This document shows positions 39,667 to 40,200 of a stretch of DNA of 64,000 bases, one piece after another. The translations under genes and the position numbers were made by a program. Numbering within the stretch: the first letter of the stretch is position 1; every line of letters begins with the position of its first letter. Origin of the DNA: Candidatus Liminaster caballi (GTDB lineage: Bacteria > Bacteroidota > Bacteroidia > Bacteroidales > UBA3663); assembly GCA_018065085.1 (NCBI GenBank), contig JAGHUA010000003.1, forward strand, positions 1-64,000, in the 5' to 3' direction. The notes beneath the pieces were generated by a model. That model had not been told where the DNA came from and did not search any database. It worked only from the letters and a program-made list of their open reading frames with translations.

Positions 39667-40200
39667 TCATTCGGGGTTAGAGGTTACACTGTCCGGCTGT
39701 TCCTCGTTGCCCCAGCACTGAGCCACGTCTGGGTCGGTGAAGTAGAAGTCGGCGTAGATGTCCAGGAACTGCTCGCCCGCGTATTCGGCCAGCGCCTCAG
39801 TTTTGAAGGCAAGGCGCGCGCCGCCGTACGTGTTCGAGTACGATGACGCATTATTCGCGTTCGCACAAACGAGGCCGCCGCCCGCGTTCGCATTGTTGCT
39901 GGAGCGGCCCACGACACGCCCCAGTGGCTTCGCGTGTAGCTCAGGATGATCAGCGGCGAACTCTTCAGTGCAGACAAAGCACCAGGGGTAGTAGCGGCGC
40001 TCACCTGGATCGAAGGTTGGCACCCATCCCTCGTTCAGGGCTTCGGCAATCAGTCGGATCTTGAAAGCTGCCACCATATCAGAGGGCAGCAAGTGGGTGA
40101 TGGCATAGAACTCTCCCGGCTCCATCTTGACGGCCTTGAGCACGTCATCCATCGTCTTGATCTTCTCACAGATCTCAGGGAGTTTAGTTTTTTTTCTCAT
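39667..40200 (-). CDS. Bacteroidales phage/mobile-element protein with ALNEGW..YYPW N-terminal half and DGR-variable-like C-terminus
   Basis: MRKKTKLPEICEKI...LIAEALNEGWVPTFDPGERRYYPW...GRVVGRSSNNANAGGGLVCANANNASSYSNTYGGARLAFKTEALAEYAGEQFLDIYADF. Confidence 0.65.
   Translation of the reverse strand: MRKKTKLPEICEKIKTMDDVLKAVKMEPGEFYAITHLLPSDMVAAFKIRLIAEALNEGWVPTFDPGERRYYPWCFVCTEEFAADHPELHAKPLGRVVGRSSNNANAGGGLVCANANNASSYSNTYGGARLAFKTEALAEYAGEQFLDIYADFYFTDPDVAQCWGNEEQPDSVTSNPE

What the first reader, a model, noticed from the sequence alone, without database searches (positions are those of the whole stretch)
39801..39918. DGR-like variable region in a small protein beside the repressor, sharing an 18-nt in-frame block with the fibre C-terminus at the left edge
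Seen directly: GGAGCGGCCCACGACACG occurs at 1..18 and at 39901..39918, both translating on the minus strand as GRVVGRS near the C-terminus of otherwise unrelated proteins. In the 39.9 kb copy this continues SNNANAGGGLVCANANNASSYSNTYGGARLAF, with many AAC/AAT codons and a GC-rich 3' end (ggcggcgcgcgccttgcc), like a DGR variable region with an IMH-type GC end. The fibre runs off the window exactly where the equivalent variable stretch should start. Inference: one DGR, with its RT and template repeat left of the window, diversifies both the tail fibre and a remote second target about 40 kb away next to the lysogeny switch. The function of the second target is unknown.
Basis: partly seen in the sequence, partly recalled or inferred. 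Interest (0 to 1): 0.85.

Follow-up and report, generated by a model that had tools for sequence, protein, structure and literature searches.

The report
Phage hypermutator with remote second target
A virus integrated in a gut bacterium carries a targeted-mutation machine that randomises the tip of its attachment fibre and also a small, probably intracellular protein made early in infection; the same arrangement recurs in many related phages, at least one of them isolated, so the role of the second target can be tested.

Summary
The window is the left end of contig C56 of a Bacteroidales genome. Contig C21 continues it and holds what was predicted: the end of the fibre variable repeat (VR1), a 114-bp template repeat (TR), an RT-3 structured RNA and a reverse transcriptase. 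TR and the 39.8-kb copy (VR2, 39808..39921) differ at 8 positions, all TR adenines. The assembly gap is the VR1 core, which in TR holds all 27 adenines. The prophage (~46 kb) sits in a tRNA-Ser gene. VR2 is ~40 kb from TR in the prophage but ~5.9 kb in the circular phage. In 14 relatives, including Bacteroides phage BT-TP2, the TR diversifies both fibre (182/367 A sites, 2/1145 others) and small protein (171/367, 5/1145). The small protein is encoded among early genes, lacks a signal peptide, and is the only target found in compact DGRs of Flavobacteriia and other phages. I infer an intracellular binder, possibly counter-defence; untested. Prior art: Benler 2021 (Quimbyviridae) and a 2025 Nature paper reported distal second targets; LoVEphage's is homologous. 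So this is a new member of a known kind, in a wider family than I found described. Caution: this RT has YCDN where ten relatives have YCDD.

The parts
39667..40200 (-). CDS of the second DGR target: small protein, 177 aa, no Pfam/NCBIfam/PADLOC hit, PHROG 11581, no hydrophobic N-terminus or TM segment
   Evidence: 70 homologues
39808..39921 (-). VR2: variable repeat, 114 bp, 93% identical to TR at C21:203-316; 8 mismatches, 8 at TR adenines
39808..39822 (-). IMH-like GC-rich 3' end GGCGCGCGCCTTGCC of VR2, shared with VR1 and TR; the next codon is TTC in both VRs and AAC in TR
1..7899 (-). Tail fibre-like first DGR target (2,633 aa in window, phrog_14959), running off the contig end and continued on C21:1-58
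1..21 (-). 5' end of VR1; the contig ends where the hypervariable core begins (77 bp in TR, holding all 27 TR adenines)
40262..40293 (-). Bacteroidota-type promoter TTTG-N20-TATATTTG reading into the small gene (6 such matches in the whole window, both strands)
40239..40258 (.). Inverted repeat CGTGCTGACGGGTTAGCACG between promoter and start codon; operator-like (inference)
40361..40807 (+). Divergent regulator/repressor-like gene (phrog_8 transcriptional regulator, 2e-6), giving the lysogeny-switch arrangement
40864..40880 (.). attL core GCGGAGAGAACGAGATT; second copy at C21:5254-5270, the 3' end of an intact tRNA-Ser(gct)
34312..36960 (-). Early-operon protein (882 aa, phrog_28855; the same PHROG as the primase-like 1012-aa protein beside compact DGRs)

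Best explanation
A temperate Caudoviricetes prophage (~46 kb, in a tRNA-Ser gene) carries one diversity-generating retroelement (DGR) that writes adenine-randomised copies of one template repeat into two genes. One is the C-terminus of the tail fibre (VR1, next to TR and RT). The other is a small protein at the head of the early operon beside the repressor (VR2). Shown: RT, TR, RT-3 RNA, shared IMH-like ends, adenine-only mismatches at VR2, and the same three-part arrangement in 14 relatives with equal mutation rates and spectra in both targets. Inferred: mutagenic retrohoming supplies both VRs from one RNA. The small protein acts inside the cell early in infection, as a scaffold whose loop binds a variable host or rival-element factor, most likely for counter-defence or host takeover. 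The phage could thus vary its adsorption and its intracellular contacts together. My confidence is about 0.97 for the anatomy, 0.75 for an intracellular early protein, and 0.45 for the counter-defence/takeover role.
For: Own genome: an RT hit at C21:795-1280, within the reading frame L017:507-1838; TR at C21:203-316; VR1 end at C21:1-58. TR vs VR2: 8/8 mismatches at A, with 27 A among 114 positions, hypergeometric p = 4e-6. The VR1 assembly gap spans the TR segment that holds all 27 A. RT-3 RNA (RF03068) lies between TR and RT here and in 5 relatives. The att pair and the integrase on C21 link the two contigs. Fourteen TR/VR1/VR2 triples: VR1 182/367 A sites and 2/1145 other sites changed; VR2 171/367 and 5/1145. 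BT-TP2: 13/13 at TR A, same gene order. Close phage pairs: VR 122/666 differences, backbone 47/1764. Early position: beside RecT, MBL-fold, DnaD-like loader or DnaG-like genes in relatives; no signal peptide or TM segment by hydropathy.
Against: The window's RT reads YCDN where all ten aligned relatives read YCDD, so it may be impaired; the 8 changes may predate that. VR1's core is not assembled, so current VR1 diversity in this prophage is unseen. The function of the small protein rests on position and lack of export signals only. Foldseek gave no significant match for either model, and the variable loop is modelled with low confidence.
Confidence: 0.88

Rival explanations
1. The shared block is an ordinary homologous or recombined protein segment; no DGR is involved.
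For: The block lies in frame in both proteins, as a shared domain would.
Against: A third, TR-like copy lies next to an RT with mismatches only at A. The asymmetry is replicated in 14 phages.
Confidence: 0.01
2. The DGR is real but defunct here: the RT is catalytically impaired (YCDN) and VR2 is a frozen record of past activity.
For: The second Asp of the YxDD box is Asn only in the window's RT among 11 aligned.
Against: The RT frame is otherwise intact. The assembler broke exactly at the VR1 core, as a mixed population would cause, though repeat ambiguity could do the same.
Confidence: 0.3
3. The second target is another virion or adsorption protein, as in Bacuni phages, where both targets resemble fimbrial tip proteins.
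For: It shares the TR with the fibre. Bacuni phages also have a distant target gene (PMC8143477).
Against: It is encoded with early/replication genes, away from the structural genes, in the window, BT-TP2 and many relatives. It is 120-215 aa long and has no export signal.
Confidence: 0.1
4. The second target tunes lysogeny or superinfection immunity, for example as a variable anti-repressor or exclusion factor.
For: It is the first gene opposite the repressor, with its own promoter and an operator-like repeat. Nearly the same place is used in BT-TP2.
Against: In most relatives it lies inside replication/recombination operons away from a repressor.
Confidence: 0.2

Closest known systems
Quimbyviridae / LoVEphage DGR with a second target in a defence-related region (Benler et al. 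2021, PMC8008677; also PMC12629997, 2025)
   Same: One DGR, one target in the tail region and a second, distal, non-structural one. The LoVEphage second target is homologous to the window protein (hhalign probability 100, E 1e-39) and has 11/11 mismatches at TR A.
   Different: LoVEphage is 71 kb with a frame-split RT and its target lies near methyltransferases. Here the phage is ~46 kb, the RT is one frame with a fused C-terminal domain, and the target is first in the early operon beside the repressor.
Bacteroides phage BT-TP2 (PQ571279.1, 45.2 kb, host B. thetaiotaomicron BG12)
   Same: Same gene order: fibre-VR1-TR-RT-3 RNA-RT, integrase, repressor, small target.
   Different: An HTH gene lies between repressor and target. 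The target crosses the record ends and is unannotated. RT has YCDD.
Bordetella phage BPP-1 DGR (mtd/TR/avd/brt)
   Same: RT plus TR plus a fibre-tip VR with adenine-specific mutagenesis and a GC-rich 3' end (comparison from general knowledge).
   Different: BPP-1 has a single target and a separate avd gene. Here there are two targets, and a C-terminal RT domain that is a separate ~98-aa gene in compact relatives.
Bacuni phages (PMC8143477) and nd4/nd12 tentaclin phages (PMC10743442)
   Same: Phage DGRs with two targets; in Bacuni one is distant.
   Different: Their second targets are described as adhesion or receptor-binding proteins; here it is an early, non-structural protein.
DGRs diversifying putative antigen sensors (Dore et al. 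2024, PMC10907252)
   Same: Precedent for targeted hypermutation of proteins in putative conflict systems and for remote targets.
   Different: Bacterial conflict systems; here a small phage protein.

Membership tests
Diversity-generating retroelement | Reverse transcriptase with DGR-type motifs next to TR | tested here: met
   C21 RT reading frame with an RVT_1 hit and a GLSIGLRSSQ motif; related RTs sit by TRs in many phages
Diversity-generating retroelement | TR and VR differing only, or nearly only, at TR adenines | tested here: met
   Window 8/8; 14 phages VR2 171/367 A vs 5/1145 non-A
Diversity-generating retroelement | IMH-like GC-rich 3' end of VR differing from TR (IMH*) | tested here: met
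   GGCGCGCGCCTTGCC then TTC in VR1 and VR2, AAC in TR
Diversity-generating retroelement | Accessory protein (Avd or functional analogue) | tested here: inconclusive
   No separate Avd seen near the RT; a C-terminal RT domain matches a ~98-aa gene that follows RT in compact DGRs; role untested
Diversity-generating retroelement | Catalytic box YxDD of the RT (a sign of present activity rather than of membership) | tested here: not met
   Window RT has YCDN; ten relatives have YCDD. Membership by descent and by TR/VR repeats stands; present activity is uncertain
Quimbyvirus-type DGR with a non-structural second target | Second VR distal to the structural genes in a homologous small protein | tested here: met
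C-type lectin fold DGR target | CLec fold of the VR domain | tested here: inconclusive
   No significant PDB match by sequence or fold; models are helical with a low-confidence VR loop

The most novel reading that the evidence does not exclude
Phages of Bacteroidota, and loci in Ignavibacteria bins, share a family of small early proteins built as dedicated hypermutation scaffolds: a helical core with a variable loop, possibly not a C-type lectin. Some phages drive them with the fibre's own DGR ('two-front' diversification of adsorption and intracellular contacts). Others carry compact DGRs in the replication region whose only detected targets are 1-3 tandem copies of this protein.
Probability: 0.5. 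Interest if true: 0.82.

Novelty: new member of a known kind. Interest (0 to 1): 0.62.

Why it matters
Phage DGRs are usually understood as host-range devices acting on tail tips. A conserved second target, diversified at the same rate and encoded among early replication genes, points to a second arena inside the cell where random binding variety pays. The family found here (70 protein hits; 395 matching places in viral contigs; compact DGRs with this as the only detected target) turns the isolated Quimbyvirus observation into a general question. BT-TP2 in B. thetaiotaomicron, and LoVEphage prophages reported as inducible, make it testable.

Tried and rejected
(1) Shared block as a chance or plain homologous segment: rejected by TR and adenine-only mismatches. 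(2) The C41 RT (L002), the first candidate because it lies near a contig end: it belongs to a separate locus beside another tail gene; the relevant RT is on C21. (3) A control that made C, G or T the 'free' base did not discriminate, because tandem paralogues and conserved flanks still passed; replaced by fixed-frame counts over all 108 bp and unbiased re-extension. The compact loci were still chosen by an A-tolerant search, so their rates are biased upward. (4) VR1/VR2 sharing a specificity: concordance at A sites within a phage 0.425 vs 0.379 between phages, permutation p = 0.043; too weak to claim. (5) Fold: AlphaFold of the window family gave pLDDT 66, of a compact member 82; Foldseek found nothing significant; PDB sequence search nothing credible. 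The planned control, BT-TP2 fibre end against PDB, also found nothing, so absence of a CLec hit says little. (6) RT within 10 kb of the small gene in 80 viral contigs: none; whole records are not held, so a remote RT could not be checked there. (7) Prevalence: 2 other genomes of the same genus lack the gene; 4/248 order and 3/399 phylum genomes carry it, as expected of a phage gene.

Full report
OBSERVATION. The 18-nt block is at 1..18 and 39901..39918 and reads GRVVGRS on the minus strand in both proteins. Its 17-base core occurs exactly three times in the whole 2.94-Mb genome: these two and one on contig C21. The window is C56:1-64000, so its left edge is a contig end.

THE MISSING HALF. The 39.8-kb stretch matches C21:203-316 at 93% and C21:1-19 at 100%. 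C21 begins with the end of the fibre (...GARLAFFGSIENESALGD*). Then come a 114-bp template repeat (TR) reading RVVGRSNNNANANGGLVYANANNASSNSNTNNGARLAN, an Rfam RT-3 RNA at 328-462, an RT reading frame with a C-terminal extension, and an amidase. The gap between C56 and C21 corresponds to 77 bp of TR that hold all 27 of its adenines. The assembly therefore broke at the hypervariable core of VR1, as a mixed population or repeat ambiguity would cause.

ADENINE SPECIFICITY. TR and VR2 (39808..39921) differ at 8 of 114 positions, all TR adenines: six A>G and two A>T (27 A available; hypergeometric p = 4e-6). The 3' end GGCGCGCGCCTTGCC is common to TR, VR1 and VR2, followed by TTC in both VRs but AAC in TR, an IMH/IMH*-like difference.

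PROPHAGE. A 17-bp repeat at C56:40864-40880 and C21:5254-5270 lies at the 3' end of an intact tRNA-Ser(gct) on C21, next to an integrase. The prophage is about 46 kb. VR2 lies ~40 kb from TR when integrated but ~5.9 kb away in the circular phage. The adjacency of C56 and C21 is inferred from these shared features and from BT-TP2 synteny; it was not seen in a read.

THE SECOND TARGET. The small gene (39667..40200, 177 aa) is the first gene leftward from a divergent regulator. It has an exact Bacteroidota-type promoter (TTTG-N20-TATATTTG; the consensus is from general knowledge) and an operator-like inverted repeat upstream. It has no Pfam, NCBIfam or PADLOC family, belongs to phrog_11581, and lacks a signal peptide or TM segment by hydropathy.

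RELATIVES WITH TWO TARGETS. Seventy homologues keep a constant backbone and vary at the TR asparagine positions. In genomes holding the small gene and a window-type RT, the RT locus carries VR1-TR-RT and the small gene matches that TR. Over 14 phages with TR/VR1/VR2 of equal length, VR1 is changed at 182/367 A sites and 2/1145 others; VR2 at 171/367 and 5/1145, with nearly the same spectrum (A>G 51% in both, A>T 36% and 40%, A>C 13% and 9%). The two genes are tens of kb apart in many (for example ~40 kb in L032 and L042, ~38 kb in L036 and L057). Pairs of near-identical phages differ at 122/666 VR positions against 47/1764 outside. The phage record BT-TP2 shows the whole arrangement, 13/13 at TR A, with the small gene unannotated across the record ends.

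COMPACT DGRs. More distant members (L022-L028, L073, L074, L078-L080, L085, L087-L089, L092, L094, L095, L100-L105, L107) have 1-3 tandem small genes, mostly followed directly by TR and RT, without a fibre target in the stretch seen. Counting 48 genes in 23 loci, 638/925 A sites and 20/2776 other sites differ (chosen by an A-tolerant search). Several sit among DNA primase, replication, terminase and portal genes. Their ~98-aa gene after RT matches the C-terminal domain of the window RT.

POSITION AND FUNCTION. In Bacteroidales relatives the gene lies between RecT, an MBL-fold protein and a DnaD-like loader; in the window it opens the early operon, and in BT-TP2 it follows an HTH gene at the same place. 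This supports an early, intracellular role. What it binds is not known; counter-defence or host takeover is my inference, helped by the neighbourhood reported in the literature.

PRIOR ART. Benler et al. 2021 described a second, non-structural, distal DGR target in Quimbyvirus near defence-related genes (PMC8008677). A 2025 Nature paper found four prophage species with a distal second VR near methyltransferases (PMC12629997). LoVEphage's second target is homologous to the window protein and has 11/11 A-site mismatches. That LoVEphage corresponds to Quimbyvirus is inferred from shared features (frame-split RT, methyltransferases, tRNA ligase). Two-target phage DGRs with adhesion-type second targets are also known (PMC8143477, PMC10743442). 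So the window system is a new member of a known kind. I did not find the breadth of the family, the compact DGRs built on it, or its early-operon placement in the papers searched, but supplementary tables could not be read.

CAVEATS. The window RT has YCDN where ten relatives have YCDD; present activity is uncertain. The fold is unsettled.

Noticed in passing
C21 RT (L017:507-1838): Catalytic box YCDN instead of the YCDD of all ten aligned relatives; a possible loss or attenuation of RT activity in this prophage.
   Followed up: partly
G000:C41 (L002/L019), about 2.1-4.5 kb: A second, unrelated DGR-like locus in the same genome: RT with YMDD, a tail-protein gene beside it and repeats 232 bp apart.
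   Followed up: partly
C21:328-462; L139:40783-40932; L043:5135-5283: Rfam RT-3 RNA (RF03068) lies between TR and RT of these DGRs, suggesting that this RNA family is the TR-adjacent spacer RNA of DGRs.
   Followed up: partly
L139 (PQ571279.1) 1-141 and 45084-45224: The BT-TP2 record has a 141-bp terminal duplication that ends at the start of VR2; probably an assembly break at the variable repeat, leaving the target gene unannotated.
   Followed up: partly
L124/L134, L125/L135, L123/L133, L126/L138: Several related RTs match in two parts within one open frame, indicating an insertion of about 20-35 residues just before the YxDD region.
   Followed up: no
P0068: A metagenomic 'protein' joins the small-gene backbone to an unmutated TR end (...NNGSRLANRKRN), probably an assembly chimera between VR2 and TR.
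   Followed up: no
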